A stretch of DNA of 39,509 nt from Pseudanabaena sp. UWO311 (GTDB lineage: Bacteria > Cyanobacteriota > Cyanobacteriia > Pseudanabaenales > Pseudanabaenaceae), in NCBI RefSeq assembly GCF_006937785.1, contig NZ_SJEE01000026.1:32001-71509 (forward strand), given 5' to 3'. Made by a program: the position numbers and the translations under genes. The notes under the pieces are model-generated. The model saw only the letters and a list, made by a program, of their open reading frames with translations, was not told the DNA's origin and ran no database searches. Positions 3,798-37,214 of this stretch are shown here, piece after piece. The number at the start of each line of letters is the position of its first letter. Positions within the stretch are counted from its first letter, which is position 1.

Positions 3798-3836
3798 ATA
3801 AAGTAAAAACCACGCTGCGCGTGGTTTTTACTTTAT
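3798..3836. terminator. Perfect 18-bp hairpin, loop TGC, after dnaN
   Basis: Arms 3798-3815 and 3819-3836 are fully complementary around loop TGC (core GCTGCGC). A-rich on the left and T-rich on the right, so it can act as a terminator in either direction. It sits between the dnaN stop (3849) and the DUF3769 start (3744), so it probably ends dnaN mRNA. It belongs to the palindrome family described in the findings. Confidence 0.8.
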
Positions 3837-3848
3837 AACAATGCTCGC

Positions 3849-5003
3849 CTAATTGCGGATTTGCACAGGCATCAGCAAATAAGTCATTTTGGTTGCCCCA
3901 ATTGGTACAAGCACAGCAGGGCTAGTTGGATTGTTCATCTGAATTTGGATTTCATTGCTCGGTAGAGCTTTTAAGCCATCTAATAAATATTTGACGTTAA
4001 AGGCTATTTCCACATCTTCACCTGAAATCTGGGCAGGCAGAGATTCACGTCCTGCGGCGACATCAGGAGCTTCAACAGAGAGCGAAATTTCCTGCCCAGT
4101 AGAGTCAATTGTAATTTTGACAATGTTATTTTTTTGGTCTGCCAATACAGCAATGCGTTCTAGAGCGGATAAAAATAATTTGCGCTCGACTGTAACTTGA
4201 CGTTCAAAGCGGCTGGGAATCAATTGGCGATAGTTGGGGTAGGTGCCATCTAACAAACGGGAAATTAAGATTTGATTAGCACTTTGAAAAATCATATTGG
4301 CACGATCAAACTTAACTGCGATCGCACCCTCTGTTTGTTGGTTGAGCATCCGTTCTAGTTCACGCAAGGCTCTAGCAGGAATCGTCACCTCCAGATTAGT
4401 AGTCACGGTATCCCCCGTCACAGGAGGCTCATCTGCATCCAAAAATCCAGTTTGCACAACGGATAAGCGATGTCCATCGGTAGCCGCAAACTCTAAGCGA
4501 TCGGCAGTAGCAGTCAGATGCACACCCGTGAGAATACGCTTGGTCTCATCAGCCGAAGTGGCAAACAGGGTTGAGGACAAACCACTCAGCATTGACTCAA
4601 CAGGCAAATAGGTAGTTTCGCCATCTTCGCCAATTTGAGGTAACTCAGGAAACTCTTCCACAGGTAAACCATGCATTTGATAACGTCCTGAACCACAGAC
4701 AATCGAGACCATCGTGTTGTCTGTGTCCACAGTGATCGTGATGTCTTCATCAGGAAGACGCGACACAATGTCGTTAAGTAACTTTGCTGGCAGAGTAATC
4801 GATCCCGCCTCTACGACTTGAGCAGGAAATGAGACCTGAATACCTAGATTGAGATCAAAGGCAGTCATACCAAGACTTTGATTGGAGCCGTCAGCATCTA
4901 ATCGAATGTTTGCCAAAATTGGATGGGTGGGGCGAGATGCGACCGCACGACCGACAAGGGCAAGGTTAGCAGCGAGTTGGTTTTGGGGACAGACTAGTCG
5001 CAT
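3849..5003 (-). CDS. dnaN: DNA polymerase III beta subunit (sliding clamp)
   Basis: A 384-residue protein, the normal clamp length. It starts MRLVCPQNQLAANLALVGRA and ends in the typical clamp C-terminus TYLLMPVQIRN. Other clamp signatures are RPTHPILANIRL near residue 25, the ATDGHRLSV motif in domain 2 and DGTYPNYRQLIP in domain 3. The protein forms the ring that tethers the replicative polymerase to DNA and also binds other replication and repair proteins. It is transcribed away from a dense DnaA-box cluster, the arrangement described for the origin region of Synechococcus elongatus. No dnaA gene is in the window. The ORF is intact. Confidence 0.97.
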   Translation of the reverse strand: MRLVCPQNQLAANLALVGRAVASRPTHPILANIRLDADGSNQSLGMTAFDLNLGIQVSFPAQVVEAGSITLPAKLLNDIVSRLPDEDITITVDTDNTMVSIVCGSGRYQMHGLPVEEFPELPQIGEDGETTYLPVESMLSGLSSTLFATSADETKRILTGVHLTATADRLEFAATDGHRLSVVQTGFLDADEPPVTGDTVTTNLEVTIPARALRELERMLNQQTEGAIAVKFDRANMIFQSANQILISRLLDGTYPNYRQLIPSRFERQVTVERKLFLSALERIAVLADQKNNIVKITIDSTGQEISLSVEAPDVAAGRESLPAQISGEDVEIAFNVKYLLDGLKALPSNEIQIQMNNPTSPAVLVPIGATKMTYLLMPVQIRN

Positions 5004-5099
5004 AGTTTGATAGAAGATTTTCTAAGCTTGAGGGTGAGAGGAAAGAAACAGCGTTAAATTTTGAATGAATTTAGATTCTAAAAAGTGCGGTTAAGGCTC

Positions 5100-5640
5100 G
5101 AAGGGAAAATTCTAGAAGATTTCAAAATTTGAGTATTTTTTAAGGTTTGAAGATTTTTAAAAGAAACAAAAAATGTATTTAAGATTACTTTGCTAATATT
5201 TTTTGAAAACGCAGTTTAAATGAAATTTTTTAAAACAAACTTTTTCTGAAAAGCTTTTTAATTTTGATTTTTTTGATTTGTGGAAGCCAATCATACCATC
5301 GTTGGAATTTTTTACAATATCAAAATCCAAATTTATTTTTTCATTCATTTTTCGTTTGAACTAATTATTACTCTTTAAAGAATAATAAATCTTTAATAGT
5401 AGTAGTAGGGGCTGTGGAAAATGTGGAAAACTCAAAGAGAACTATATAAAATAAGCTTTTTAGCATTTTTTACCTGTGGATAAACCTGTGGATAAACTGG
5501 CTAGTTTTCCACAAGGTATAAATACCTATCAAAAGTTTTCCACATTTATGCAAAAGTTTTCCCCAGATATCTCCATCTTTTCCACAGAAAGATAGTAGTT
5601 ATCCACAGGTTTTCCACAGGTAAAAAATAAACATCTAGAT
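5100..5640. other. Probable chromosomal origin oriC: DnaA-box cluster with AT-rich flank
   Basis: The 950-base gap between dnaN and psb32 has no gene. At 5413-5618 there are nine exact DnaA-type 9-mers. TGTGGAAAA is at 5413 and 5422, TGTGGATAA at 5475 and 5487, TTTTCCACA at 5505, 5536, 5578 and 5610, and TTATCCACA at 5599. A near match, TTTTCCCCA, lies at 5557. The left four boxes point one way and the right five the other. Both TTATCCACA and the cyanobacterial variant TTTTCCACA are known DnaA boxes. The stretch at about 5140-5400 is very AT-rich and could be the unwinding element. Adjacency to dnaN supports the call. Actual origin use is inferred; some cyanobacteria do not need DnaA. Confidence 0.85.
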
Positions 5641-5959
5641 TTATCAACAGATCTATATCAAAAATGTTCACGGAAAACTCTTTTGAAATTTATTGTCAAA
5701 ATCTTAATAATACTTAAATAACCAGAACTTATTAAGAGTTGTAATCCTTTTGATAATTTTAGAATTTGGGAAATTAGGACTTGATTTAGTGATTTTGAAC
5801 GGCATGTTTGAACTGGAAATTCTAAAATATTGCTGAAAATGGTGTGCGGTCGCTGAGGGCGATCGCTAAATTTTCTCTACGATTCCTTGCAGATTGATAT
5901 AGTGATGAAAAGTGAAATTGATTGATTTGAGTTTTAAAATATAGGTTTAAAAAATTGTG

Positions 5960-6673
5960 ATGGAAATATTGCTCAAAAATTTATTTTGCCGCCTATGTTT
6001 TGGGGTGATCGCCTTACTAATTAGCTTTAATTTATTGACTGGTAATGCATTGGCTTTGCAAGTGTCAGATATTCCTGACTTATCCGAAATTAAGACCCTG
6101 ACTGACCAAACTTGGGTGATTGATGATTCTGAGGTATTAAGTGCTTCGACCAAAAGTGCGATCATCAGCAAAGCTGAAAAATTAGCAGAATTAACGGGGA
6201 TCGAAGTTCATGTCGTGGCAATTCGCCGCATTGATTTAGGTCAACCTGCATCAGAATTTACGGCAGAATTATTTGATAAATGGTTCCCTTCTGGATCTGA
6301 GAAGGCTAATCAAGTACTGCTATTTATGGCGACAGAAGACCACCGTACTGCTATTCAGACTGGCGAAAAGGTAAAAGAAGTCCTGCCTGATAGCATTGCC
6401 AATAGTATTGCCGATGAGACGATGCTCTATCCTGCGCGTAAGGCAAACTATAATCAATCTGTAAATGAGGGACTTGCTCGTCTAGAGGCTGTTTTGAAAG
6501 GTAATCCAGACCCAGGTGCGCCCCTATTAGCAGTAGAAGAGACTGAGACGAGTAACTATGCTACTAGAGAGGAAACTGAGGCAAGTTCATCAAATGTGGT
6601 GGTAATTATTCTACTGGTTTTGGCGACGTTGTTACCTATGGCGACTTATTACTGGTTACAAAGTCAACCATAA
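5960..6673 (+). CDS. psb32: TPM-domain protein, photosystem II repair factor Psb32
   Basis: About 237 residues. An N-terminal signal peptide or membrane anchor (LLKNLFCRLCFGVIALLISF) ends near GNALALQ. A TPM domain covers about residues 48-175, with the opening WVIDDSEVLSASTKSAI and the conserved KWFPSGSEKANQVLLFMATEDHRTAIQTG. A single C-terminal membrane helix (VVVIILLVLATLLPMATYYW) follows. This architecture matches cyanobacterial Psb32 and plant TLP18.3, thylakoid proteins that help photosystem II repair and protect against photodamage. ATG at 5960 is preferred over GTG at 5957. The last codons (CCA TAA) lie inside the left arm of the large hairpin 6666-6728. Confidence 0.85.
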   Translation: MEILLKNLFCRLCFGVIALLISFNLLTGNALALQVSDIPDLSEIKTLTDQTWVIDDSEVLSASTKSAIISKAEKLAELTGIEVHVVAIRRIDLGQPASEFTAELFDKWFPSGSEKANQVLLFMATEDHRTAIQTGEKVKEVLPDSIANSIADETMLYPARKANYNQSVNEGLARLEAVLKGNPDPGAPLLAVEETETSNYATREETEASSSNVVVIILLVLATLLPMATYYWLQSQP

Positions 6674-6728
6674 CTCAAAAAGAAAGAGGCGGCGCATCGC
6701 GCCGCCTCTTTCTTTTTGAGTTATGGTT
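6666..6728. terminator. Perfect 30-bp palindrome spanning both stop codons, loop ATC
   Basis: Arms 6666-6695 and 6699-6728 are perfectly complementary around ATC (core GCATCGC). The structure covers the final Pro-stop of psb32 (CCA TAA at 6668-6673) and the mirror-image Pro-stop of the convergent gene at 6721-9186. A-run outside, GGCGGCGC inside and T-run beyond make a bidirectional intrinsic terminator for both genes. Confidence 0.9.
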
Positions 6729-9186
6729 CATCAAAATCGGTGTCTTGTGCTAGGTTGGGTGGAGTTACAGAGCGAGTGACTCTTACTTTATGGCTTTCGC
6801 GTTGGGTTTGAGCTTCGATCGCGATCGCTTCAAAAGCAACATCAATACTACTGAGCGGAATCGAGATGTTTGTGCGGGCTTCAATAAACGCGGCATTGGG
6901 AACAGTACTAAAATCTAAGAGCCAACGTGGTCCATCTACAATCATCCGCGTTTGCAAATCTTTAATCCAGAATTTCACAAAGAATTTAGGAGCAAGTGCT
7001 GGGAGACGAACGGTTACTAACATTGGTGTTCCTGAAATTAGCTCACCAGTAGGAATAAGAATTTCAGGTATGGGAATTGGTTCTTGTTCAGAAAAAGACT
7101 GGGTTGAAGATTCTTGAAGATTGCGAATAGTTTGGGCTGTCTCAGCCAAATTAGAAGCAGCAGAATTTTGGCTTGAGACAGTGCTAACTGGGAAAGTGTT
7201 TGGATCTATAGGATCTTCCCAAACATACTCATTTAAAATCAAATCAGGTTCAGAAGTTAATAATCGATCCAGCTCAACATCAAGTTCGAGATCTAGTTCG
7301 GCGAGGCTGGTGGCTTCGGTGATCGTTCTTGGTGGTTGTTCAGGGTTGTTTAGATCTATGGATGCACTAGTTAAAGTACTCGATAAATCATTTTCTAGTA
7401 ATGGATCGCTGGGTGGGAAGGTTTCGAGTAATAGTTCTTCGGTACGTTGGTTGGCTTTTTGGGATGCGATCGCATCAGCAGATAGAGTTTGTAGTTTATT
7501 GAGAAACCGATTTCCGCTGGGTTTTGATTGATTGGTGACTGATGCATTTTCTTGCCACGGCTGCTCTAGTAGCTCTTCATAGTTGTGAGGGAGTTCTTCT
7601 TCAAAACTATAAAGTAGTTCTGGTTCTTCTTCAGAGTTTGATGAAATTTGGCGATCGCTATCGGCTAAATCATCAATATTTCTCAGATCAAAGTGCGTCT
7701 CAGTTTCTTGAGAAATATCTGTCTCTACCTGTGGAAAACTTTGAGGATAATCATCAGTTATTTCAGGATTAGGGGGAGTATAAATCTGATTACTGCTCCT
7801 ATTTTGTTGAGATGGTAAAGGTGGTAATGACAAAGAATTTGCAGGTGTTTGTTGCTTTAATGCTTCTCCCTGATTAGCTTTAGATCTGTTAGAAGGTATG
7901 GGTGGAAGACTAAGCGAATTGGCTGGTTTTGGCTTTGGTGATAGACTTCTAGACTTATTTTCCGTTGGTGTTGATACCTGTGGAAAACTCTGTGGAAATT
8001 GTTGGTAACTAGACTGATCTCTGGTTGTTTCCGTCGTTTGAGAATTGAGAGTTGTTTCTTGAGAAGAATGTTTTTTAGCTTCTTTAATGAGTTCGGGCAG
8101 AACTCTCGCAGCAGGATAGGAAACTGCGATCGCCTGTTGCGTCACATACAAATCTCTATCTAGTTGAAAGTCTTGATGGGGATGAATTTGGACTTCACCG
8201 ATGAGAACTTGAATTTCTGAAGGTGGCGGCACAATGATCTGATACGCAAAGGTGATTGCGCCAGTTGCTGGATTGCGATCGCCAGAATTCGTGATCTCGA
8301 AGCGCTGATTTACGACAATATCAAGGGTCTGTGGATCTTTGAGGCTGACTTCGATTTCTCCTTGAGTATAGACTTCTCCTGTGAGATGGAAGCTATTGTT
8401 TTCATTAAGAATATATTGAGGCTGTTTTAAACGTAATAAAATACGAGGCTGAAATGGTTCATCTGTTTCTTCAGTTAAATCATTTGGGCTATATGCTTCT
8501 ACCAGCTCCAAGACATTAGGGTGATCGCTTAGAGATTCTGTTTCTAGTTCTATATTTTTAGAATTACCATCAATCTCTTCGTCTCCATCATCCTCATCAT
8601 CAAAGAGTGCAAACTCTTCAAACATAGATTCGACGAGTTCCGTTGATCTTTGCTCAGCAATATCGAGAATTGGTGAGCTATAACTTAGAGGGGTTGGCTC
8701 AGTTTGAATGATTCCCAATGCATTAGTATGTGACTCATTGGCAAGTTCGGCAGGAGTTTCTACTTCTTCTGCAACTTCGTTATATTGCCATTCGGAGCCA
8801 GCTTCTGCTGAAATTTGAATTACATCAAACTTGACAGTCTTTTTCCATGCAGGGATTAAATTGGTGCTTTCTGATCCTGTGCCAGATTCTTGGTTCGGTT
8901 CTGTAGCTATGCAGTCAATCTGCCATATCCCTGGTACAAAGTTGGTGTATGGCATGACGATCAGCAACCCATCATGGCTGATGCGTTTAGCAATTTTTTG
9001 TTGTAAAGGCTGATGCCGCACATCTGCGAGAGGGCGATAGGCGATCGCGATCGCAACTAGCGCATTTGCTGAAGCAGAGCGTGCAGCAAGTCGGTACTGC
9101 CCCTCCAAAATCTCTACAGTTGGAGATTCTAGGGGCAACCAGGACTTGTCACCTTTGCGTTGTAGCAAAAACTCCCAGTTTTCCAT
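6721..9186 (-). CDS. Large acidic cyanobacterial hypothetical protein with beta-rich ends
   Basis: An 821-residue protein I do not recognise. The N-terminus (1-110, MENWEFLLQRKGDKSWLPLE) and the C-terminal 110 residues (ELISGTPMLVTVRLPALAPK) look like globular beta domains. Residues about 245-345 also look beta-rich, possibly Ig-like (FHLTGEVYTQGEIEVSLKDP). Between them are long disordered Ser/Gln/Glu/Pro stretches. Two short duplications are visible: PANSLSLPP(I/L)PS occurs twice and PQSFPQV twice. There is no signal peptide or membrane helix, so it is probably cytoplasmic, perhaps a scaffold; that is inference. Its final codon and stop are encoded by the arm of the palindrome shared with psb32. 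Confidence 0.7.
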   Translation of the reverse strand: MENWEFLLQRKGDKSWLPLESPTVEILEGQYRLAARSASANALVAIAIAYRPLADVRHQPLQQKIAKRISHDGLLIVMPYTNFVPGIWQIDCIATEPNQESGTGSESTNLIPAWKKTVKFDVIQISAEAGSEWQYNEVAEEVETPAELANESHTNALGIIQTEPTPLSYSSPILDIAEQRSTELVESMFEEFALFDDEDDGDEEIDGNSKNIELETESLSDHPNVLELVEAYSPNDLTEETDEPFQPRILLRLKQPQYILNENNSFHLTGEVYTQGEIEVSLKDPQTLDIVVNQRFEITNSGDRNPATGAITFAYQIIVPPPSEIQVLIGEVQIHPHQDFQLDRDLYVTQQAIAVSYPAARVLPELIKEAKKHSSQETTLNSQTTETTRDQSSYQQFPQSFPQVSTPTENKSRSLSPKPKPANSLSLPPIPSNRSKANQGEALKQQTPANSLSLPPLPSQQNRSSNQIYTPPNPEITDDYPQSFPQVETDISQETETHFDLRNIDDLADSDRQISSNSEEEPELLYSFEEELPHNYEELLEQPWQENASVTNQSKPSGNRFLNKLQTLSADAIASQKANQRTEELLLETFPPSDPLLENDLSSTLTSASIDLNNPEQPPRTITEATSLAELDLELDVELDRLLTSEPDLILNEYVWEDPIDPNTFPVSTVSSQNSAASNLAETAQTIRNLQESSTQSFSEQEPIPIPEILIPTGELISGTPMLVTVRLPALAPKFFVKFWIKDLQTRMIVDGPRWLLDFSTVPNAAFIEARTNISIPLSSIDVAFEAIAIEAQTQRESHKVRVTRSVTPPNLAQDTDFDEP

Positions 9187-9265
9187 ATTCGGCGATCGCG
9201 GGTTAAGGCGGTAAAGTGTGCTTAGTTATCGCAAATACTAACCCATCTAGGCTTGTATAGCAATT

Positions 9266-9306
9266 AAAACCAAAGATGTTCAGCGAAGCAGTATATCTTT
9301 GGTTTT
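9266..9306. repeat. Inverted repeat with central GCGAAGC
   Basis: Arms 9266-9277 and 9295-9306 (AAAACCAAAGAT and its complement) flank a 17-base loop containing GCGAAGC at 9283-9289. It is the first of three hairpins packed into the 258-base gap between the 821-residue gene and the DUF4079 gene. It is A-rich left and T-rich right. Confidence 0.65.
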
Positions 9307-9325
9307 CCCACAGTTTTCGATCAGA

Positions 9326-9384
9326 CGAACCAATAAATTTTTAAAAGTGTTGCTTTGCAACACTTTTAAAAATTTATTGGTTCG
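9326..9384. repeat. Perfect 28-bp palindrome, loop TTT
   Basis: Arms 9326-9353 and 9357-9384 are perfectly complementary around TTT (core GCTTTGC). The inner 16 bases of each arm are identical to those of the hairpin at 24644-24692, so these two are copies of one element. It follows the 3' end of the DUF4079 gene and may terminate it. Confidence 0.85.
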
Positions 9385-9386
9385 GG

Positions 9387-9423: not shown

Positions 9424-9444
9424 TTTTTTTGTGAACTTAGATAT

Positions 9445-10064: not shown

Positions 10065-10070
10065 TTCGGT

Positions 10071-10202
10071 CAGCAATTCTCATTATGAAAATTGTTTTTT
10101 TTGAAAGCCTGTCTAAGTCGGGCTTTCAAAAAACCAATTTTGGTGTTTCCAGTGCCGCAGGCACTGGAAACACCAAAATTGGTTTCATATTAAGAATTGC
10201 TG
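10071..10202. repeat. Composite nested palindrome with a 26-bp inner stem, loop GCA
   Basis: Three nested or adjacent inverted repeats. The outer arms are 10071-10080 and 10193-10202 (CAGCAATTCT). A left hairpin has arms 10097-10109 and 10121-10133. A right hairpin is a perfect 26-bp stem, 10131-10156 and 10160-10185, closed by GCA in the core CCGCAGG. The two inner hairpins share bases 10131-10133. The whole 195-base gap between the DUF4079 gene and the STAND gene is essentially made of this and the hairpin at 10016-10064. Confidence 0.8.
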
Positions 10203-15386: not shown

Positions 15387-16196
15387 ATGCAAGACCAAGA
15401 AACTAGCTGGCAGTCCTTAGTCCTAGTTGCCATATTAGGAATTCTCGCGGTTATCAGTTTTAACTCATTTATAATTATCAATCCTGGCGAAGCAGGCGTG
15501 TTGAGCATATTGGGAAAAGCCAAGGATGGTGTATTGCTGGAAGGAGTGCATTTTAAGCCGCCTGTAATTTCTCAAGTCGATGTTTATGATTTGACTGTGC
15601 AGAAGTTTGAAGTCCCAGCCCAAAGCTCGACCAAGGATTTGCAACAGCTTACGGCAAGTTTTGCGATTAACTTTCGCCTTGATCCGATTGAAGTCGTGAC
15701 TATTCGTCGTACTCAAGGTACTTTGCAAAATATTGTTTCTAAAATTATTGCACCGCAAACTCAAGAATCTTTTAAAGTCGCCGCAGCAAGGCGTACTGTC
15801 GAAGAGGCGATCACTAAGCGTGATGAGCTAAAGCTAGATTTTGATGAAGCTTTAAGTCAGCGCTTAAGTAAGTACGGCATTATTGTTTTAGATACCAGTG
15901 TCGTTGATTTAAATTTCTCGACTGAGTTTTCTAAGGCGGTAGAAGAAAAGCAAATTGCCGAGCAACGCGCTCAGCGAGCTGTGTATATTGCGAGAGAAGC
16001 CGAACAAGAAGCTGAAGCTACCATCAACCGCGCCAAGGGACAGGCTGAAGCGCAGCGACTGTTGCGTGAAACACTGACATCCGAGTTGTTACAAAAACAA
16101 GCGATCGAAAAATGGGATGGCAAGTTTCCCCAAGTACTGGGTGGAAATGGTGCAGTTCCATTTCTTAATCTAGATATTACAAAATCTCAAAAGTAA
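15387..16196 (+). CDS. Prohibitin / SPFH-domain membrane protein
   Basis: 269 residues. One N-terminal membrane helix (SLVLVAILGILAVISFNSFI) is followed by an SPFH domain, about 30-190, that opens with the prohibitin motif INPGEAGVLSILGKAKDG. A charged coiled coil follows (EEKQIAEQRAQRAVYIAREA, about 190-240), containing the prohibitin-like RAKGQAEAQ. Family knowledge: these proteins form large ring or cage assemblies on membranes that organise lipid domains and modulate FtsH proteases; Synechocystis has similar prohibitins. An ftsH gene is 15 kb away in this window, but no direct link is visible. The last codons and stop lie inside the palindrome 16186-16242. Confidence 0.9.
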   Translation: MQDQETSWQSLVLVAILGILAVISFNSFIIINPGEAGVLSILGKAKDGVLLEGVHFKPPVISQVDVYDLTVQKFEVPAQSSTKDLQQLTASFAINFRLDPIEVVTIRRTQGTLQNIVSKIIAPQTQESFKVAAARRTVEEAITKRDELKLDFDEALSQRLSKYGIIVLDTSVVDLNFSTEFSKAVEEKQIAEQRAQRAVYIAREAEQEAEATINRAKGQAEAQRLLRETLTSELLQKQAIEKWDGKFPQVLGGNGAVPFLNLDITKSQK

Positions 16197-16242
16197 TCAA
16201 AAAAGGGGGCGCTTCGCGCCCCCTTTTTTGATTACTTTTGAG
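16186..16242. terminator. Perfect 27-bp palindrome overlapping the prohibitin stop, loop TTC
   Basis: Arms 16186-16212 and 16216-16242 are fully complementary around TTC (core GCTTCGC, the complement of GCGAAGC). The left arm includes the last codons and the TAA stop of the prohibitin gene (16194-16196). A-run, G5CGC stem and T-run make a strong bidirectional terminator between convergent prohibitin and pyrE. Confidence 0.9.
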
Positions 16243-17524: not shown

Positions 17525-17581
17525 AAAATCCCCAACAATAAAGGCAGCGCCTCTAGCGCTGCCTTTATTGTTGGGGATTTT
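17525..17581. terminator. Perfect 26-bp palindrome, loop CTCTA
   Basis: Arms 17525-17550 and 17556-17581 are perfectly complementary. It is the first of two consecutive hairpins between the convergent secreted-protein gene and cpcD. Its core GCGC-CTCTA-GCGC departs from the three-base-loop pattern. It is a likely terminator of the plus-strand gene. Confidence 0.85.
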
Positions 17582-17595: not shown

Positions 17596-17650
17596 AAAGC
17601 CAAAAAGAGTAATGGCGGCGCTTTGCGCCGCCATTACTCTTTTTGGCTTT
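17596..17650. terminator. Perfect 26-bp palindrome, loop TTT, end of the cpc operon
   Basis: Arms 17596-17621 and 17625-17650 are perfectly complementary around TTT (core GCTTTGC). AAAAAGAG...GGCGGCGC arms give the A-run, GC-stem and T-run of a bidirectional terminator. It lies 19 bases beyond the cpcD stop (17670), so it probably terminates the cpc transcript. Confidence 0.9.
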
Positions 17651-17900: not shown

Positions 17901-17972
17901 AAAAACAAATTTTCAATATAGATTGTTGAAATTGATTAATATATGTACCTTTTAGATACACATACTATTGAA

Positions 17973-18003
17973 GTTTTCATTTTGCAGTAGACAAAATGAA
18001 AAC
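17973..18003. repeat. Intercistronic 12-bp hairpin between cpcC and cpcD
   Basis: Arms 17973-17984 (GTTTTCATTTTG) and 17992-18003 are perfect, with loop CAGTAGA. It lies between the second cpcC stop and cpcD. The stem is AT-rich and weaker than the others. In the mRNA it could mark a processing or attenuation point lowering cpcD expression; that role is inferred. Confidence 0.65.
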
Positions 18004-18031
18004 TCAAAACCCTAATAGGATTACTTTTTGT

Positions 18032-18932: not shown

Positions 18933-18985
18933 TAACCGAATTTGTTAAAATTACTGCTAAGCAGTAATTTTAACAAATTCGGTTA
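18933..18985. repeat. Perfect 25-bp intercistronic palindrome between the two cpcC genes, loop TAA
   Basis: Arms 18933-18957 and 18961-18985 are perfectly complementary around TAA (core GCTAAGC). It starts five bases beyond the first cpcC stop, in the middle of the operon, and ends before the AAAGGAG of the second. As RNA it would form a long stem that could stabilise the upstream message or act as a partial terminator. Confidence 0.88.
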
Positions 18986-21934: not shown

Positions 21935-22044
21935 ATATAGCAACGTAAGAGATAGATAGGACAATTCAAAACCCAAAAGATGGCAGAGCGAAGCTCTGCC
22001 ATCTTTTGGGTTTTATGTCCTAAGCAAAGCTTACATTGCTATAT
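21935..22044. terminator. Nested palindrome with a perfect 22-bp core, loop GAA
   Basis: Core arms 21968-21989 and 21993-22014 are perfect around GAA (GCGAAGC at 21988-21994). Outer arms ATATAGCAA(C)GTAAG at 21935-21949 and its complement at 22030-22044 match at 14 of 15 positions and end exactly at the stop codon of the beta-propeller gene (22045). It is a likely terminator for that minus-strand gene. Confidence 0.85.
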
Positions 22045-24643: not shown

Positions 24644-24692
24644 AAGAAAGTTTTTAAAAGTGTTGCGAAGCAACACTTTTAAAAACTTTCTT
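24644..24692. repeat. Perfect 23-bp palindrome, loop GAA
   Basis: Arms 24644-24666 and 24670-24692 are perfect around GAA (core GCGAAGC). With a small bulge the pairing continues outward into AACC/GGTT. The inner 16 bases of each arm are identical to the palindrome at 9326-9384. It is the first of three successive hairpins in the gap between pcyA and the response-regulator gene. Confidence 0.88.
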
Positions 24693-24712: not shown

Positions 24713-24781
24713 TTGCTGTAAAAGCCCAATATTGGAAAGACTGGCGAAGTCCGCTTTGCCAATATTGGGCTTTTACAGCAA
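24713..24781. repeat. 23-bp inverted repeat with structured 23-base spacer
   Basis: Arms 24713-24735 and 24759-24781 are perfectly complementary (TTGCTGTAAAAGCCCAATAT...). The spacer contains GCGAAG and CTTTGC segments that can extend the stem imperfectly, as if an older palindrome had decayed in its centre. Confidence 0.8.
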
Positions 24782-24809
24782 TAAATGGTTTGCTTTGCGA
24801 ACTATTTAT
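24781..24809. terminator. 13-bp hairpin with loop TTT covering the response-regulator stop
   Basis: Arms 24781-24793 and 24797-24809 pair at 11 positions plus two G-U wobbles around TTT (core GCTTTGC). The right arm includes the stop codon of the minus-strand response regulator (24806-24808). It begins at the last base of the preceding inverted repeat. Confidence 0.7.
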
Positions 24810-26347
24810 CTATTTTGGTAAGCTTTAACTCGTTGTAGTCGATTATGAATGCGACTTGCTAGATCGATGCCCACGATTGGTTTGCATAGATAGTCATCTG
24901 CGCCAACACTAAAAGCGAGATTTTGAGTATTAACATCTGTCATCACACTCAGAAATAAAATTGGTAACCGCTGCCAGTCGAGATTGCTCCTTAGAGATTG
25001 ACAGAGCTCAAATCCATTGATTTCAGGCATATTAACATCCAACACCAAGACATCAGGCAATACTGATTGCAACACCGTCCAAAAGTCCTGTGGATCTGCC
25101 AAAGTCGTTACTTTAAATCCCCAAGGCTTCAGTAGCTTAGGTAGCGATCGCAAACAATCGACATCATCATCAACAATCATCACCTTAGTTCCAATTTGAG
25201 AATGATCTAGCTCAAATCTTGAAGATGATATATCTGCGATCGCGGCGATGGGGGCGCTTTGAATTCGATGCGTATTTTGAATTGACTCTTCTAAAGAAGT
25301 TACCAATGTTTCTAAAATTTCTAACTGTTGTTTTTTTAGTAAAGGTTGGCTAGTAAGCAAATTTTCTAATTGACGCGCTAATTGCATTGCCATCGTTAAG
25401 CCAAGGGTTCCCAAAGTTCCCGCTAATTTGTGAGCTACCTGTTGAGCCTGTGCTTGTAATTGTGGATCTAGTTTGCCAGATTTTAATTTCCTGACAGCTT
25501 CAAATAATACTTCTAATTGTTCAAGACTTTTCGGCTTGGTGTCTATCCAAATTTGGTTTAAGAATTCTAAATACTGCTTCTGTTGATTATCTTGAGACTT
25601 TGCTTGTGATAATTTAGGTAAATTGCGGCTAGCAGACTCAATTTGGCTTGGCATCACGACATCGTCTACCTTATCTGGCGCTTTGAGGTAATAGCCTCGT
25701 CCATGGACAGTCGCAATAAAATCTGATGGAGCACCTGCCTCTACTAACTTATGGCGTAATCGTCGAATATGTGATCGCACTGTTGCTTCGGAGGGAAATT
25801 CATCGGACGACCATAGGCGATCGAGGATCTCGTCAGCACTGAGTAAATGCTGGCTGTCGCGTAATAACAGTTCTAACAACTCATATTCTTTATTTGTGAG
25901 AGTTAGGGAATGATCGTTGTAGGAAACTTCGCAGGTACTGGGATTTAGCAGTAAACCTCCCCAAACTAGTAGAGGAAAAGAACTGGCATTACTGCGTCGC
26001 AATAAAGCTCGAATCCTTGCAATTAATTCAGCTATATCAAAAGGTTTAACCACATAGTCATCAGCCCCCGCATCTAATCCGCTGACTTTGGCGGTGCTGG
26101 CGTTTTGTGAGGTGAGTAATAGAATGGGTGTGGTATATCCTTCGGCACGAAAGCGTTGACATAGAGTTATTCCGTCTAGCTTGGGCAAAACGATATCTAA
26201 CATAATTAGGTCATACTCAAAGGTCGAGCCATAAGTCCAACCCATTTCCCCATCTTTGACCACGTCTACAATATAGTGATTGTCGGTCAGATTTTTAGTT
26301 AGGACAGCAATTAATACGTCATCATCTTCTACGAGTAATATTTTCAT
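24806..26347 (-). CDS. Multidomain response regulator: REC - winged helix - Hpt - REC
   Basis: 513 residues from the ATG at 26347 (MKILLVEDDDVL); four further upstream codons are open but overlap the preceding gene. Numbering here includes those four codons. REC1 has acidic pocket E11-D13, phosphoacceptor D55 (LIMLDIVLP), T83 and K105. An OmpR/PhoB winged helix covers about 130-228 (TNKEYELLELLLR, RSHIRRLRHKL, TVHGRGYYL). An Hpt domain covers about 260-365, with likely phospho-histidine H310 in AHKLAGTLGTLG. REC2 has D441 (LVLDVNMPEINGF) and K493. One chain thus holds a DNA-binding output and a relay His-Asp pair. No histidine kinase gene is nearby. It is probably co-transcribed with the upstream single-domain receiver. 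Confidence 0.93.
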   Translation of the reverse strand: MKILLVEDDDVLIAVLTKNLTDNHYIVDVVKDGEMGWTYGSTFEYDLIMLDIVLPKLDGITLCQRFRAEGYTTPILLLTSQNASTAKVSGLDAGADDYVVKPFDIAELIARIRALLRRSNASSFPLLVWGGLLLNPSTCEVSYNDHSLTLTNKEYELLELLLRDSQHLLSADEILDRLWSSDEFPSEATVRSHIRRLRHKLVEAGAPSDFIATVHGRGYYLKAPDKVDDVVMPSQIESASRNLPKLSQAKSQDNQQKQYLEFLNQIWIDTKPKSLEQLEVLFEAVRKLKSGKLDPQLQAQAQQVAHKLAGTLGTLGLTMAMQLARQLENLLTSQPLLKKQQLEILETLVTSLEESIQNTHRIQSAPIAAIADISSSRFELDHSQIGTKVMIVDDDVDCLRSLPKLLKPWGFKVTTLADPQDFWTVLQSVLPDVLVLDVNMPEINGFELCQSLRSNLDWQRLPILFLSVMTDVNTQNLAFSVGADDYLCKPIVGIDLASRIHNRLQRVKAYQNR

Positions 26348-26352
26348 AGCTT

Positions 26353-26727
26353 TTACCAATCCAGCATTTTCATAATCTGATCGGGGAGATCGAGGGAATT
26401 AAAAGGTTTTGTAATTACCCCACTAACCCCTAAATCATTAAACTGTCTTCTCTCTGAGGTTTGGGCTTTGGCGGTTAAGAAAATCACAGGAATCTGAGCT
26501 GTTTGTGGATCGGCTTGAAGTGCTTTAAATGTGGCTATACCATCCATATCTGGCATCATCACATCTAGCAAAATAGCATCAGGGCTTTCATTGCAAGCAG
26601 TTTTAATCCCTTGTGGTCCCGAACTTGCAATTAACACCTCCCAATCAGCGACCATCTGAATACCAAACTGCACAACAGTTTGAATGCTTTCTTCATCATC
26701 AACAATCAAAATCCGTTTAGTCGGCAT
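26353..26727 (-). CDS. Single-domain CheY-like response regulator
   Basis: 124 residues, one receiver domain. The acidic pair is D10-D11 (ILIVDDEES), the phosphoacceptor is D55 (AILLDVMMPDMDG), with T85 (FLTAK) and K107 (GVITKPFN). It lacks an output domain, so it works by protein contact or as a relay intermediate. It ends five bases before the ATG of the REC-wHTH-Hpt-REC gene, so the two are almost certainly one operon and may exchange phosphate through the Hpt domain; that exchange is inferred. Its start is ATG at 26727. Confidence 0.93.
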   Translation of the reverse strand: MPTKRILIVDDEESIQTVVQFGIQMVADWEVLIASSGPQGIKTACNESPDAILLDVMMPDMDGIATFKALQADPQTAQIPVIFLTAKAQTSERRQFNDLGVSGVITKPFNSLDLPDQIMKMLDW

Positions 26728-31298: not shown

Positions 31299-31357
31299 TA
31301 CAAGAACCACTATTCAGGGTTTGTGCTGTATATAGCGGTTAAAAGTCTTTAAAAAAA

Positions 31358-31386
31358 CAAAAAGCCGCGCATTGCGCGGCTTTTTG
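31358..31386. terminator. Perfect 13-bp hairpin after ftsH, loop ATT
   Basis: Arms 31358-31370 (CAAAAAGCCGCGC) and 31374-31386 are perfect around ATT (core GCATTGC). It lies 17 bases past the ftsH stop. Read on the minus strand it is a GC stem followed by a T run, so it is the ftsH terminator. Confidence 0.9.
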
Positions 31387-31403
31387 GTAATGAATTGAGA
31401 AAG

Positions 31404-33266: not shown

Positions 33267-33436
33267 TTTTTTATACTTTAAGATTTGTTGCTAAAGTCAT
33301 TATAGAAATGATGGTTTACAGGCGCTAGACCGAAAACGTAGGGATAGCCGCCTGTATCGCTAGGAAGATAAGCACCAAAAAGCAGCGACTTGTGCGACTT
33401 TTTAGTTATCTACAATTTGATATGAAATAATTATGT

Positions 33437-33622
33437 ATGGCAAAAGATTTATATCACGATCACGTTAAACACGCCCTTGAGAAAGATGGGTGGGAAATAA
33501 CTCATGATCCCTATGAATTGCGTGTAGGTGGAGTTGAAATGTATAGAGCTGTGCAACGCAGTCAACTTAAGCTTTTGGTTTATGACTTAGAGAAGGAGAT
33601 TATTGAACAATGGATAAAGTAA
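33437..33622 (+). CDS. xisH: XisH-like protein with an internal deletion of the nuclease core
   Basis: 61 residues, against about 138 for XisH. The N-terminal part (MAKDLYHDHVKHALEKDGWE, ITHDPYELRVGGVEMY) is a perfect-looking XisH start. It jumps directly to the XisH C-terminus (QLKLLVYDLEKEIIEQWIK). The missing middle normally holds the PD-(D/E)XK-like acidic core (IDL.AE...AVEIKSF). The reading frame is kept, so this is an in-frame deletion of roughly 75 codons with the junction near 33541-33550. Its stop overlaps the start of xisI by 13 bases. XisH is named for the fdxN-element excision of heterocystous cyanobacteria, but xisHI pairs are widespread. Confidence 0.85.
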   Translation: MAKDLYHDHVKHALEKDGWEITHDPYELRVGGVEMYRAVQRSQLKLLVYDLEKEIIEQWIK

Positions 33623-33951
33623 ATGTCTATAGGCAATATATTCAACAACTAATGCAAGCAAGAGCAAATCGTTCTATGCAATCTTCAAAGGAAGTCGAGG
33701 CTCAGACTATTTTTGATGTGGAGCGCGATCATTATCAGTTAGTTTATGTAGGCTGGAAACGCAATGATATAAGAGATTATGGATGTTTATTACATCTAGA
33801 TATTAAGGATCAAAAGATTTGGATTCAATATGATGGGACTGAGGGTGGTATTGCCTATGAGCTATTGAAGCTAGGGGTACCTAGGGAAGATATTGTATTA
33901 GGATTTCAACCTCTTAGAGTGCGTGCTGATACCGAGTTTGCTGTAGGTTAA
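33610..33951 (+). CDS. xisI: XisI-like fdxN element excision controlling factor
   Basis: 113 residues, normal length. It begins MDKVNVYRQYIQQLMQARAN and carries the family core DHYQLVYVGWKRNDIRDYGC, LHLDIKDQKIWIQYDGTEGG and GVPREDIVLGF, with the usual TEFAVG end. XisI proteins accompany XisH; biochemical function is not established, though the pair has been compared to toxin-antitoxin or nuclease-regulator pairs. The gene looks intact while its partner is truncated. Its last codons (Ala-Val-Gly-stop) lie in the left arm of the palindrome 33940-33996. Confidence 0.9.
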   Translation: MDKVNVYRQYIQQLMQARANRSMQSSKEVEAQTIFDVERDHYQLVYVGWKRNDIRDYGCLLHLDIKDQKIWIQYDGTEGGIAYELLKLGVPREDIVLGFQPLRVRADTEFAVG

Positions 33952-33996
33952 AAAGAATTGCGGCGCAAAGCGCCGCAATTCTTTTTAACCTACAGC
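33940..33996. terminator. Perfect 27-bp palindrome overlapping the xisI stop, loop AAA
   Basis: Arms 33940-33966 and 33970-33996 are perfectly complementary around AAA (core GCAAAGC). The left arm holds the last three sense codons and stop of xisI (33940-33951). AAAAAGAATTGCGGCGC arms give the A-run/GC-stem/T-run layout of a bidirectional terminator. Confidence 0.92.
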
Positions 33997-34039
33997 TATG
34001 ATTTTTCAAGCAAGCGAGTCAAGTTGAGAACTCTATATT

Positions 34040-36235
34040 TCATGCAACTTGATAATTGAAATTGAAAGTTGCCCATTGTTGTACATCTAACATCCATGCA
34101 TCACCTATATTAGCGGCATTGCCAAACTCTGAAGGCTTGCCAGCCCGATCGAGATCATCCAAAAGAGATTGTGCGACTTGTAACGGATTAGGAATGGAAA
34201 TTAATCCATTCAGAGATGAGGCTTGGCGTTGCGAAGCTTCTAAAATTTTGGCAACCTGTAAAAGTGGCGATCGGCTAATCACAATATAAACATCGACCAT
34301 ACCTTTAGGAGCAGAAACCGCCCAATTCATTGGCGCTTTGGGATAGGGAATTGTTAAAGTTTCCGATGGTGGAATGATGCCGTCGTTGGCGTAGGGAGTG
34401 GCGATAAAGTTGGGTGTGAGAATCTTGCTGCGCGGATCGAGACAGAAAATTCGCATATATAGCGGCTGATTGCTAAAGTTTTCGATCTGACATTCAAGGC
34501 GATCGCCAATATTAATCGGTTTAGTTCGCGCGATATTACTGAAAGCATTTGCAGGTATTAGAGCAGATCGAGCCGCAGATTTGCTAGCCACAGTGACGGC
34601 TCTTTCATCGACACCGATCATGGCTTTGAGCGTGACTCGCACATCAAGATGGGTTGCGGCTTGATTTTCCGTAGTGCGGATCAGTTTGGCTGCAAAGAAA
34701 CTTTCAAGAAAGGGTTGCAAACGCTTAATCGCCACACCTACCGACTCGCCCACAGAACCAAAGGAGCCGAGAATCGGTGTATGCCCAATTGTAAATAGAC
34801 CATAGCTTGCCGACTGCACTCCAAATAGACAATCAGCGCATTGTTCATTGGCATTTACGCCAAACATATTTGGCATAGTTGAGAAGGCACTGGTGGCATC
34901 AACACGTTCAATTTTGCTTAAGCCAACATCAAGGGCGATCGCTAATTTGACATTGCGCGAAATTGCTCGCATTACTTCCTGAAGTAATTGCCCTTTTTCT
35001 AATTTTGGATTGATGCTGTAATCATTTAAAACTTCAATTTTGCCGTTAAATCCATTGCGCGATTTGAGCTGAACTGTAGTTTGTGGTTTAGATGGAATTG
35101 ATTTGAGAACAGAGTCTGTTTCTGATTCATTACCTATCGGAGCACTTGCTGCTCCCACCACATTCAAAATCGCACCAGCCGCATAGTTACTCAAAACGGC
35201 GATCGGTAAGCCTGCCAAATAGACATCGGCTATATGGCGATCGCTACTGCTGTTAATAATCACACCATCGGAACCAAAGTTAGGAATTGGTAACATTTCC
35301 GCAAAGGTGCTTGAAGCGATCGCCTTTTGTTTCGCCTCTTCAACTTCCCACATATTTGCAACTTGTTTCTCGATGGTGAGATTGTCATTGTGCAAAGCAC
35401 GGCGATCGAGGGTAGTGGCAAGATCACTCATCACCACATTGATTTTCGTAGCAGGAACGATCTGCCATAGTTGCTGCACTAGGGCATAGGTAAATGCACC
35501 ACTACTAAAACCCGACCATTGTGCATCAGCACAGAGCATATCGCCAGAGGCTGCGCGTAAAGTTGTACCGATTAGTTTCTGATCAATGGGTTGCTCGTTC
35601 GGCTCTGCTACAGTTGGTGGTTGCCAGTTTTTCAGTCCAACTCGCGATCTCAAACGAAAGTTGCCAATTGCCGAAACATTCGGATAGTAAAAGCCTGCAT
35701 CGATGATATTCAAAATCCGATCCGTAGCGATCGCTTGCAGCCACCCCTGCCATTCCTGTTCCGTAATATCTCGCAGATTTTCCAAATTTTGCGGCAAGCC
35801 ACTATCTACTGGCACAAGTGTATTGTAATTTCCGAGACGCGATCCATGTCCGCTAAAGTGAACAATCACCAAATCATTAGGTAAAGTCTGAGCAACTAAA
35901 TGGGTCGCGATCGCATCAGTAATGTTGCTGCGGGTAGCATCAAGATCGGTCAGCGTCACAATATCTTGGGGCGCAAAGCCAAAGCGATGAATTAGTAACT
36001 CCTTTTGTAGCTCCACATCATTGATACAACCATGCAGAGGTAGCCATCCATTCGCTTCCTCTTTAGCATCATATTGATTAATCCCTATCAGTAGCGCTCG
36101 TTTACGTGGCGTTGATGCAGTCGTTTGACGCACATATTGCTCGGCAGCAAATGCCACGCGATCGCGAGTGAGAAATTGCCATCCGATTAGACTGGTCAGT
36201 CCTGCTTGTAAGAATTGTCTCCGCGCAATTCCCAT
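34040..36235 (-). CDS. TAT-exported caspase-fold (C14) protein with degenerate active site
   Basis: 731 residues. The N-terminus has a twin-arginine signal (ARRQFLQAGLTSLIGW) with likely cleavage near VAFA. The caspase p20 domain covers about 44-300: RKRALLIGINQYDAKEEANG opens it, and the catalytic histidine H130 is in VIVHFSGHGSRLG. The strand expected to end D-x-C-H/Y-S-G reads IIDAGFYYPN, so the cysteine position is G181 and activity as a cysteine protease is unlikely. The remaining 400 residues contain beta-rich parts (RLECQIENFSNQPLYMRIFC) like DUF4384-type domains. Cyanobacterial orthocaspases with altered dyads are known. The export signal puts it in the periplasm or lumen; a scaffolding or binding role is inferred. 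Confidence 0.85.
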   Translation of the reverse strand: MGIARRQFLQAGLTSLIGWQFLTRDRVAFAAEQYVRQTTASTPRKRALLIGINQYDAKEEANGWLPLHGCINDVELQKELLIHRFGFAPQDIVTLTDLDATRSNITDAIATHLVAQTLPNDLVIVHFSGHGSRLGNYNTLVPVDSGLPQNLENLRDITEQEWQGWLQAIATDRILNIIDAGFYYPNVSAIGNFRLRSRVGLKNWQPPTVAEPNEQPIDQKLIGTTLRAASGDMLCADAQWSGFSSGAFTYALVQQLWQIVPATKINVVMSDLATTLDRRALHNDNLTIEKQVANMWEVEEAKQKAIASSTFAEMLPIPNFGSDGVIINSSSDRHIADVYLAGLPIAVLSNYAAGAILNVVGAASAPIGNESETDSVLKSIPSKPQTTVQLKSRNGFNGKIEVLNDYSINPKLEKGQLLQEVMRAISRNVKLAIALDVGLSKIERVDATSAFSTMPNMFGVNANEQCADCLFGVQSASYGLFTIGHTPILGSFGSVGESVGVAIKRLQPFLESFFAAKLIRTTENQAATHLDVRVTLKAMIGVDERAVTVASKSAARSALIPANAFSNIARTKPINIGDRLECQIENFSNQPLYMRIFCLDPRSKILTPNFIATPYANDGIIPPSETLTIPYPKAPMNWAVSAPKGMVDVYIVISRSPLLQVAKILEASQRQASSLNGLISIPNPLQVAQSLLDDLDRAGKPSEFGNAANIGDAWMLDVQQWATFNFNYQVA

Positions 36236-36362
36236 ATTTCTGCCGTGATTCCCTTTGTTTTTTGCGATCGCTCCTTTTAATTAAAGCCGATGCAAGGCAA
36301 CTCTTTTCAGTTATTTTGCCCAATTTGCAACTAGATTTTTCAATAAGTAGAATTACTCAAAC

Positions 36363-36407
36363 AACAAAAATAAGATGAGACGAAAAGCATCTCATCTTAT
36401 TTTTGTT
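36363..36407. terminator. Perfect 18-bp hairpin at the Uma2 gene end
   Basis: Arms 36363-36380 and 36390-36407 are perfect, with loop CGAAAAGCA. The right arm takes in two bases of the stop codon of the minus-strand Uma2 gene (36406-36408). A-rich left, T-rich right. Confidence 0.85.
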
Positions 36408-37098
36408 AAAGGTTTTCTGGATTAACACCCATTTCACGAAGCTTAGCGGCAAATTTTGCGATCGTATCTAGAGCCTGTTCTTTAGCAAATCTCTCAGTCT
36501 CAGCGCGATCGCGTTCTAGTTGAGCTTGTTCTGCTTGTTCGAGATAAGTTAAAAACTTTGTGCCATCAGGCTGAAAAATCTTGAGAGTTTCATCGGTAAG
36601 TTCAAAACGAATTCCTAAGCGAGGGCTTGTCCAATTTTGGATGTCGTCAATTGGTTCGAGATGACGATCTGCATGATTTCTCAGCCAGCCGACCAAATCA
36701 TTGGCAAGATGATCGTAGACATAGTATTCCTCAACACCATAGGTTTGGTAGAACTCAAATTTCCGTGCCATCTCCGAAATTCGATTTCCCCTCGACAAGA
36801 CCTCAAATACTACTTGAGGTGCAATTCCTTCTTCGAGGTGTTGAATATAGGAACCTCTTGCTCCCTTGGGTCTCCCAAACACGACCATCACATCAGGAGC
36901 GCGGCGAATTTCTGACTGCCCCTCCACAGGATACCAAAGCAAACCTCCCGCAATGAATACATCATTGTTGTCTTTAAAAAGAGCCTCTAATCCGCCCTCA
37001 ATCGTGACGATCCATTGATAATGCTCGGTACTTTCTGCCATCGGTTGCCCGTCACTACTAGGATAGATGATTTCTAATTTGGAGATTGTGTTGGTCAT
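36406..37098 (-). CDS. Uma2 family (DUF820) PD-(D/E)XK endonuclease-like protein
   Basis: 230 residues. Family signatures are RRAPDVMVVFGRPKGARGSY (D69), then IAPQVVFEVLSRGNRISEMA (E99) and KFEFYQTYGVEEYYVYDHLA with K113, matching the Uma2 PD-(D/E)XK core. A C-terminal coiled coil (EQAEQAQLERDRAETERFAK) is the common cyanobacterial extension. The family is multi-copy in cyanobacteria and its function remains unclear, though a nuclease fold is certain. It is a single gene, intact, with a hairpin at its end and another upstream. Confidence 0.9.
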   Translation of the reverse strand: MTNTISKLEIIYPSSDGQPMAESTEHYQWIVTIEGGLEALFKDNNDVFIAGGLLWYPVEGQSEIRRAPDVMVVFGRPKGARGSYIQHLEEGIAPQVVFEVLSRGNRISEMARKFEFYQTYGVEEYYVYDHLANDLVGWLRNHADRHLEPIDDIQNWTSPRLGIRFELTDETLKIFQPDGTKFLTYLEQAEQAQLERDRAETERFAKEQALDTIAKFAAKLREMGVNPENL

Positions 37099-37177
37099 AG
37101 TTTTTGATCGGTATTTGGGGTTGATAAATTCGCGATCGCCAAGTAGCTAAATCTAATTATATAATCTCTTTATCCAA

Positions 37178-37214
37178 TAATCAAAGGTTGGCGCGAAGCG
37201 CCAACCTTTGATTA
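37178..37214. repeat. Perfect 17-bp palindrome, loop GAA, between divergent genes
   Basis: Arms 37178-37194 and 37198-37214 are perfect around GAA (core GCGAAGC, in GGCGCGAAGCGCC). It sits between the divergent Uma2 and hemW genes and ends 18 bases before the hemW TTG start. Here it cannot be a terminator of either neighbour; it could affect hemW translation initiation. Confidence 0.88.

What the first reader, a model, noticed from the sequence alone, without database searches (positions are those of the whole stretch)
3798..37214. A family of long intergenic palindromes with a common three-base-loop core and site-specific stems
I find about two dozen intergenic inverted repeats. Twelve have stems of 13-30 bp closed by exactly three bases within GC-NNN-GC: 3798, 6666, 9326, 16186, 17596, 18933, 21968, 24644, 24781, 31358, 33940 and 37178. 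Eleven of these stems are perfect; the one at 24781 has two wobble pairs. The core is GCGAAGC (or its complement) in four and GCAAAGC in four. A further copy of GCGAAGC lies in the loop of the 9266 hairpin. d(GCGAAGC) is known as an extraordinarily stable DNA mini-hairpin. The core is shared while outer stems mostly differ. An ordinary mobile repeat would carry the same stem everywhere. This looks like a small fold-back seed whose arms are extended or repaired by copying flanking DNA.
Basis: partly seen in the sequence, partly recalled or inferred. Interest (0 to 1): 0.78.

Follow-up and report, generated by a model that had tools for sequence, protein, structure and literature searches.

The report
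Fold-back palindromes copied from gene ends
The cyanobacterium Pseudanabaena carries long, perfect DNA palindromes every few kilobases, and comparing relatives suggests many grew when a small hairpin at the end of a gene made the copying machinery turn back and copy the neighbouring gene end in reverse.

Summary
The window is Pseudanabaena. Perfect palindromes are common across the genus loci examined, about 3 per 10 kb in this genome; 220 kb from six genomes of other genera of the family holds none. Of 369 distinct triloop palindromes, 359 are closed C(NNN)G and none G(NNN)C.

There are two kinds: dispersed repeats, some inside MITE-like elements, and site-specific ones at gene ends. In several of the latter, one arm is the conserved coding end of the adjacent gene; the other is an inverted copy matching that species' own version. 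Arms change together: over 47 orthologous sites, 71 Watson-Crick double changes where about 3 are expected. Loops change faster than flanks and are sometimes inverted.

Best explanation: hairpin-primed template switching (quasipalindrome correction and extension) acting on terminator and MITE hairpins. The mutation mechanism is known; my searches found no report of this density or of the C(NNN)G rule.

The parts
3798..3836 (.). Perfect palindrome, 18-bp stem, loop TGC, 12 bases past the stop of dnaN (3849-5003, minus)
   Evidence: identical in G018; L033 and L038 have compensatory changes at this site
6666..6728 (.). Perfect palindrome, 30-bp stem, loop ATC; the stop codons of two convergent genes (psb32 and 6721-9186) lie in the arms, 8 coding bases each
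   Evidence: G016, G009 and G005 carry differing palindromes here, G018 an imperfect-core one
9326..9384 (.). Perfect palindrome, 28-bp stem, loop TTT; stem segment shared with 24644; stretch of about 130 bp absent from G009
10131..10185 (.).
16186..16242 (.). Perfect palindrome, 27-bp stem, loop TTC; left arm contains the conserved end (CTCAAAAGTAA) of gene 15387-16196, right arm its inverted copy
   Evidence: the gene end is conserved in eight relatives, none of which has the full inverted copy; G009 has the inner stem only
17525..17581 (.).
17596..17650 (.). Perfect palindrome, 26-bp stem, loop TTT; no palindrome at this place in G016 and G018; origin unresolved
17972..18004 (.). 13-bp stem, 7-base loop; remnant of a two-hairpin element complete in G009 and absent from G018 and G019
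18933..18985 (.). Perfect palindrome, 25-bp stem, loop TAA; the G019 orthologue is also perfect, with four compensatory pairs
21968..22014 (.). Perfect palindrome, 22-bp stem, loop GAA, centre of a roughly 100-bp MITE-like element with TATAGCAA-type ends, absent from G011
24644..24692 (.). Perfect palindrome, 23-bp stem, loop GAA; stretch absent from G016 and G009
24781..24809 (.). 13-bp stem with two G-T pairs, loop TTT, overlapping the end of gene 24806-26359 (minus)
   Evidence: orthologous gene ends with differing hairpins shown under L151:6747
31358..31386 (.). Perfect palindrome, 13-bp stem, loop ATT, followed by T7 on the minus strand, 17 bases past the stop of ftsH
   Evidence: no orthologous site on hand with both flanks
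33940..33996 (.). Perfect palindrome, 27-bp stem, loop AAA; left arm includes 12 coding bases of gene 33610-33951; G018 has the same gene end but no full inverted copy
   Evidence: direction of change not settled
37178..37214 (.). Perfect palindrome, 17-bp stem, loop GAA, between divergent genes; G018 has an imperfect version

Best explanation
Pseudanabaena intergenic regions hold short hairpins of two origins: terminator-like hairpins at gene ends and hairpins carried by MITE-like repeats. Most are closed by a C(NNN)G triloop. During DNA synthesis a strand folds back at this tight hairpin and is extended on its own upstream flank (intrastrand template switching), or switches between the arms. 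This perfects the stem, lengthens it outward by writing an inverted copy of the flank (often the last codons of the adjacent gene), carries new mutations from one arm to the other, and sometimes inverts or replaces the loop. Shown here: perfect stems, concerted arm changes, arms matching the local gene end, loop inversion in part of the comparisons and rapid loop turnover, and strong enrichment in this genus. Inferred: that the copying happens at replication, that the C(NNN)G turn primes it, and that the hairpins terminate transcription.
For: Local templating: at 16186, L046:13407, L145:4781, L019:7644 (G018, G016) and L008:8293 (G005, G022, G038, G003) one arm is a gene end and the other its inverted copy in that species' own version, while close relatives have the gene end with a shorter or different hairpin. 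Concerted change: 71 Watson-Crick double changes, 71 one-sided and 9 other double changes in 950 scored pairs of 47 orthologous sites; independent change at 9.4% divergence would give about 3 and 160 (my arithmetic). Double changes show no transition excess (182 to 166; flanks 1.26 to 1), against a G-U pathway. Loop per-site difference is 0.47 at 95% or more flank identity; exact loop inversion in 24 of 94 comparisons with stems 90% alike. The AAACCC family: 18 of 22 copies perfect, with 282 of 286 freely varying pairs Watson-Crick and 15 distinct sequences. Loop orientation does not follow transcription (27 to 27).
Against: In the closest comparisons one-sided changes are as common as double ones or commoner (2.5 against 1.7% at 95% or more flank identity), so correction is not instantaneous. 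A looser first test of loop inversion was negative (16 of 136, shuffle 12.3), and in the closest set it is marginal (110 of 2000 shuffles reach it). At 16186 a TTGA(G) in relatives' right flanks may be native, so the last few bases of that arm need not be copied. Many palindromes are dispersed copies (79 of 126). Comparisons share species and are not independent. The rule C(NNN)G also holds outside the genus (21 of 25), so it does not by itself explain the enrichment.
Confidence: 0.65

Rival explanations
1. They are ordinary bidirectional intrinsic terminators in a phylum without Rho, kept perfect by selection through compensatory point mutations; nothing special copies the arms.
For: Unique palindromes favour spacers between convergent genes (17 of 64, against 15 of 246 tandem and 5 of 63 divergent), and in tandem pairs 11 of 16 lie nearer the upstream gene's 3' end. 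Arms run from A-rich outside to G+C-rich at the loop. Terminator-like sites exceed shuffles in the first half of the window (35 against 15.8, sd 4.5), though several of the 35 are repeat calls of one palindrome. Cyanobacteria lack Rho (PMC13289151, abstract).
Against: Selection cannot readily make a non-coding arm match 8-19 bases of the neighbouring gene's codons in one species and another version of them in the next. Double changes are not biased to the transitions that a G-U path would favour. Only 6 of the 12 listed sites are flagged by the terminator scan.
Confidence: 0.15
2. They are mobile palindromic elements (MITE- or REP-like) inserted ready-made; differences between copies are old divergence.
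For: 79 of 126 triloop palindromes share sequence with other places in the sample; one family has 57 copies; stretches with 9326, 10131, 17972, 21968 and 24644 are missing from some relatives; three Y1-transposase matches in the genome.
Against: A ready-made insert would not carry the codons of the gene it lands beside. 47 of 126 have no relative in the 440-kb sample. Copies vary in the middle of the stem yet stay paired (282 of 286 pairs). This accounts well for the dispersed class but not for the gene-end class.
Confidence: 0.12
3. A genus-specific hairpin nuclease (the second SbcCD) opens hairpin tips, and repair of those breaks rewrites loops and arms.
For: A second SbcC in 25 of 25 genus genomes drawn and a second SbcD of about 185 bits in 25 of 26; loops turn over far faster than flanks.
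Against: Six of 266 non-genus genomes have an SbcC2 relative but 2 palindromes in 341 kb, while G161, without an SbcC2 hit, has 15 in 40 kb (stretches chosen around two known cores). Co-occurrence across one genus is a single evolutionary event.
Confidence: 0.05

Closest known systems
Quasipalindrome correction / template-switch mutation (PMC7202029, passages seen; PMC8794818, abstract and passages seen)
   Same: Imperfect inverted repeats become more perfect by copying one arm or the nascent strand; stems gain several compensatory changes at once; loops can be inverted; stable loops are proposed to prime the switch.
   Different: Those reports concern E. coli reporters and reconstructed histories of RNA genes. 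Here it would act on hundreds of intergenic hairpins in each of many genomes, with triloops (in the rRNA data of PMC8794818 four-base loops were enriched and three-base loops depleted) and with copying of coding ends.
Intrinsic (Rho-independent) bidirectional terminators
   Same: G+C-rich hairpin, A-tract before and T-tract after the core, placed past stop codons and between convergent genes.
   Different: The T-tract is usually paired inside a much longer perfect stem, and stems run into the coding sequence.
MITEs of cyanobacteria
   Same: Dispersed, non-coding, about 100 bp with inverted ends, missing from some relatives (21968).
   Different: The palindrome is the centre of the element, and its arms vary in concert from copy to copy.
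REP / REPIN elements (PMC3733652, PMC8266576 and PMC3116915, search listings only)
   Same: High-copy intergenic palindromes.
   Different: Perfect stems of variable sequence with a triloop; I noticed no GTAG or CGTC tag in the printed copies but ran no test for one.
Small dispersed repeats (SDR) of Nostoc (Elhai and co-workers 2008, recalled; not in the library searches)
   Same: Tiny cyanobacterial repeats with compensatory changes in predicted stems.
   Different: As recalled they are 21-27 bases and confined to another cyanobacterial group.

Membership tests
Template-switch (quasipalindrome) products | One arm is an inverted copy of the other, made locally | tested here: met
   Gene-end copies in species-specific versions at several sites
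Template-switch (quasipalindrome) products | Concerted, multi-base compensatory changes | tested here: met
   71 Watson-Crick double changes against about 3 expected in 950 pairs
Template-switch (quasipalindrome) products | Loop inversions | tested here: inconclusive
   24 of 94 (13 of 58 significant, 11 of 36 marginal); looser test negative
Template-switch (quasipalindrome) products | Arises in one step during DNA synthesis | not testable with these tools
   Needs mutation-accumulation or reporter experiments
Intrinsic terminators | Located just past stop codons | tested here: met
   Enriched between convergent genes, nearer the 3' end in 11 of 16 tandem pairs (crude ORF caller)
Intrinsic terminators | G+C-rich hairpin followed by a T-tract | tested here: inconclusive
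Intrinsic terminators | Transcripts end there | not testable with these tools
   No RNA data
MITE | Multi-copy non-coding element with inverted ends | tested here: met
   For the AAACCC family only: 57 copies of the inner palindrome, TATAGC-type ends printed around several copies
MITE | Empty sites in relatives | tested here: met
   21968 missing from G011 as a 101-bp gap. For the gene-end palindrome 16186: not met, the arm sequence stays in relatives
MITE | Target-site duplication | not tested
   Only looked at by eye
REP elements | GTAG or CGTC tag and a cognate Y1 (RAYT) transposase | tested here: inconclusive
   Three Y1_Tnp matches over the cut-off in the genome; their kind and any link to the palindromes not examined; no test for the tags
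Rfam RNA families | Match above a gathering score | tested here: not met
   0 matches in the window

The most novel reading that the evidence does not exclude
Pseudanabaena has an ongoing, possibly enzyme-promoted fold-back copying process, nucleated by C(NNN)G triloops, that keeps rewriting gene ends across the genome: it turns terminators into long perfect palindromes, writes inverted copies of last codons into spacers and perhaps into the ends of convergent neighbours, and resets loops much faster than flanking DNA mutates. A second cyanobacterial lineage (G161, perhaps near Leptolyngbya FACHB-8) acquired the same habit independently.
Probability: 0.2. Interest if true: 0.85.

Novelty: new variant of a known kind. 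Interest (0 to 1): 0.62.

Why it matters
Template switching at hairpins has been seen in reporters or inferred from RNA-gene histories. Here one genus offers many natural cases per genome, with orthologous seeds, extensions and loops to compare. That makes it directly testable how long perfect hairpins and terminators arise, why their loops are C(NNN)G triloops, and whether compensatory base changes can be single events. It also warns that perfect covariation can come from a mutation process rather than from selection on RNA structure.

Tried and rejected
SbcCD as driver: the genus has a second SbcD and SbcC, but SbcC2 relatives elsewhere come with almost no palindromes and G161 has palindromes without an SbcC2 hit, so I dropped it as the cause. 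In this genome the gene beside the extra sbcD is not sbcC; in G016 the two are adjacent. One other-genus genome, G045, has two partial SbcD hits that pass the cut-off.

RNA-level selection on the loop: orientation relative to the upstream gene is 27 to 27. Ranking loops by DNA or RNA folding energy was uninformative, since nearly all triloops score alike in the tables used.

Loop inversion: the first test used looser alignments and was negative; one search required stems at least 90% identical. Both are reported.

The automated one-arm test (69 'one arm only' of 479 comparisons) mixes true cases with indels beside shared palindromes; I rest on the cases read by hand.

L008:8293: that both convergent genes end in EFA looked like codon transfer, but in G006 and G003 the left gene also ends in EFA away from the palindrome, so I do not claim transfer there. 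G009 L151:6747 has a changed C-terminus, but the direction is unproven.

Literature searches: Pseudanabaena with palindromes (25 papers, 20 listed, none apparently about this), template switching and inverted repeats, cyanobacterial terminators, small dispersed repeats, GCGAAGC hairpins, perfect inverted repeats with compensatory change and terminators (0 papers), template switching with terminators, Pseudanabaena with miniature inverted-repeat (0), perfect palindromes with template switching. I saw no report of this in what was listed; the library is open-access only.

Duplicates: L034 and L036 are the same DNA as G018 and G009 and were dropped. One search takes one comparison per site cluster, which limits this.
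Full report
WHAT IS THERE. Two further perfect palindromes, 10131-10185 and 17525-17581, were missed. The window is Pseudanabaena: its dnaN is 91-99% identical to 18 loci, 15 of them named Pseudanabaena, one Phormidium tenue and two other MAG names. It lies in a 5.2-Mb genome of 61 contigs. dnaN, psb32, phycocyanin and ftsH genes are among the neighbours.

HOW COMMON. In 400 kb of this genome there are 98 perfect palindromes with stem 12 bp or more and loop 3, 20 with loop 1 and 10 or fewer for every other loop length, and none in one Markov control. With stems of 13 bp or more and loops 3-5 the own density is 3.2 per 10 kb (141 in 439,509 bp); other genus loci range from 0.77 to 7.4, and one 20-kb stretch of G002 has none (loops 3-8). 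Outside the genus it is far lower: none in 220 kb from six genomes of other genera of the family, one in 120 kb from five genomes of other families, 18 in 1.01 Mb of 62 other cyanobacterial dnaN loci. The strict core GGCGGCGC-NNN-GCGCCGCC occurs 17 to 430 times in 25 of 25 genus genomes drawn and one to five times in 5 of 266 other class members. One of those five, G161, has 15 perfect palindromes in 40 kb (stretches chosen around two known cores) and shares a 15-base stem piece with Leptolyngbya sp. FACHB-8 (L094), so a second lineage seems to have them. In 50 kb of E. coli K-12 five perfect stems of 10 bp or more with loops 3-8 were found, one with a triloop.

THE CORE RULE. Of 369 distinct triloop palindromes in genus loci, 359 are closed 5'-C(NNN)G-3', none 5'-G(NNN)C-3' and 10 by A-T pairs; the next arm base is G in 305. 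Loops folded over strands: AAA 102, GAA 95, GTA 37, TAA 36, GCA 19, ATA 15, GGA 13, then fewer. Loop orientation shows no bias to the transcribed strand (27 to 27).

TWO CLASSES. In 440 kb, 79 of 126 triloop palindromes share sequence with another place in that sample and 47 do not. The dispersed class includes an AAACCC..GGGTTT family (57 copies in this genome), several of whose printed copies sit inside elements with TATAGC-type ends; at 21968 a 101-bp stretch is missing from G011. Stretches around 9326, 10131, 17972 and 24644 are likewise missing from some relatives. The unique class is concentrated between convergent genes: 17 of 64 such spacers, against 15 of 246 tandem and 5 of 63 divergent (crude ORF caller).

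LOCAL TEMPLATING. This is the key result. At 16186 the upstream gene ends ..ITKSQK* in the window and, with nearly the same DNA, in eight relatives; none of these has the full inverted copy downstream. An inner AAAAAGGGGGC stem is shared with G009, G006 and G015 have close versions, and G005, G022 and G011 carry their own stems of different reach. At one orthologous gene, L046 and G016 each have an extension matching their own codons, while the close relatives L047 (99% protein identity to L046) and L039 (96% to G016) lack it. At L019:7644, G018 and G016 each carry an inverted copy of their own, different gene end, the G016 one around a larger loop. At L008:8293 the arms carry the right-hand gene's last codons in species-specific versions; in G005 and G022 the left gene ends about 1 kb away, and in G003 and G038 it also ends short of the palindrome, so the left arm there is a free-standing copy. 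Of 435 palindromes examined, 75 have a stop codon inside an arm and 18 have 8 or more coding bases there; orthologues were on hand for only some.

CONCERTED EVOLUTION. One closest non-identical comparison at each of 47 orthologous sites gives 950 scored pairs: 799 unchanged, 71 Watson-Crick double changes, 50 one-sided mismatches, 21 one-sided G-T and 9 other double changes; 28 of 47 sites have a double change, 38 of 47 in any comparison. At flank divergence near 9.4%, independent change would give about 3 Watson-Crick double and 160 one-sided changes (my arithmetic). Over flank-identity bins of 95+, 90-95, 85-90 and 75-85% the double-change rate is 1.7, 4.5, 10.8 and 14.3%, and the one-sided rate 2.5, 5.1, 7.4 and 10.7%, so mutations appear first on one arm and are then shared. 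Loops differ at 47% of positions already in the first bin. Double changes show no transition excess (182 to 166; flanks 1.26 to 1). With stems at least 90% identical, exact loop inversion is seen in 24 of 94 comparisons: 13 of 58 in the more distant set (3 of 2000 shuffles reach it) and 11 of 36 in the closer one (110 of 2000); a looser first test was negative. Comparisons share species and are not independent.

MECHANISM. The simplest model is hairpin-primed template switching: a seed hairpin folds at C(NNN)G, synthesis copies the strand's own flank, and the stem becomes longer and perfect; later switches carry mutations between arms and flip or replace the loop. Monttinen and Loytynoja describe such events in RNA-gene histories and suggest that stable loops prime them (PMC8794818, abstract and passages); in their rRNA data four-base loops were enriched and three-base loops depleted, unlike here. 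In E. coli, quasipalindromes become more perfect this way (PMC7202029, passages). Termination is a plausible function in a phylum without Rho (PMC13289151, abstract), and in E. coli inverted repeats are enriched at gene ends, mostly as terminators (PMC6060812, abstract).

WHAT DOES NOT FIT OR IS OPEN. The second SbcCD of the genus is not matched by palindromes elsewhere. Why this genus, and why triloops, is unexplained. The direction of change at 6666, 17596, 33940 and 37178 is not settled, and 31358 has no comparison on hand. No experiment or RNA data bears on function.

Noticed in passing
G000:C55:116017-116778 and G000:C12:90583-93582: A second SbcD (25 of 26 genus genomes) and a second full-length SbcC (25 of 25 drawn, one partial), rare outside the genus.
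   Followed up: partly
G018 orthologue of window 24644 (L147): A repeat of about 90 bp with inverted ends (AGGACTTACGCAAAAACG..) has landed inside the left arm of the palindrome.
   Followed up: no
window 17972-18004; complete in G009 (L151): Remnant of a two-hairpin element; a similar paired-hairpin repeat (AAAACACAAAATGGC.. and AATTCACAAAAGTGT..) recurs in the genome.
   Followed up: partly
L008:8293-8347: Two convergent genes both end ..EFA* with 12 coding bases each inside the arms of one palindrome.
   Followed up: partly
L151:6747-6785 (G009), orthologue of window 24781: The gene's C-terminus differs (..QSS* where three relatives have ..QNR*) just where the palindrome arm lies, as if the arm had overwritten codons.
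   Followed up: no
for example G014:C22:3-21, G014:C27:5-23, G001:C156:2-20; L222 (G012): Some draft contigs begin within a few bases of a palindrome core, and G012 has a run of N inside one, so assemblies may break at them.
   Followed up: no
L203, L204 (G161) and L094 (Leptolyngbya sp. FACHB-8): Another cyanobacterial lineage with dense perfect palindromes, mostly C(NNN)G.
   Followed up: partly
window 230-1090: An Rpn-family recombination-promoting nuclease/putative transposase gene (TIGR01784).
   Followed up: no
window 37472-37509: A 17-bp palindrome with a 4-base loop made of HIP1-like GCGATCGC arms.
   Followed up: no
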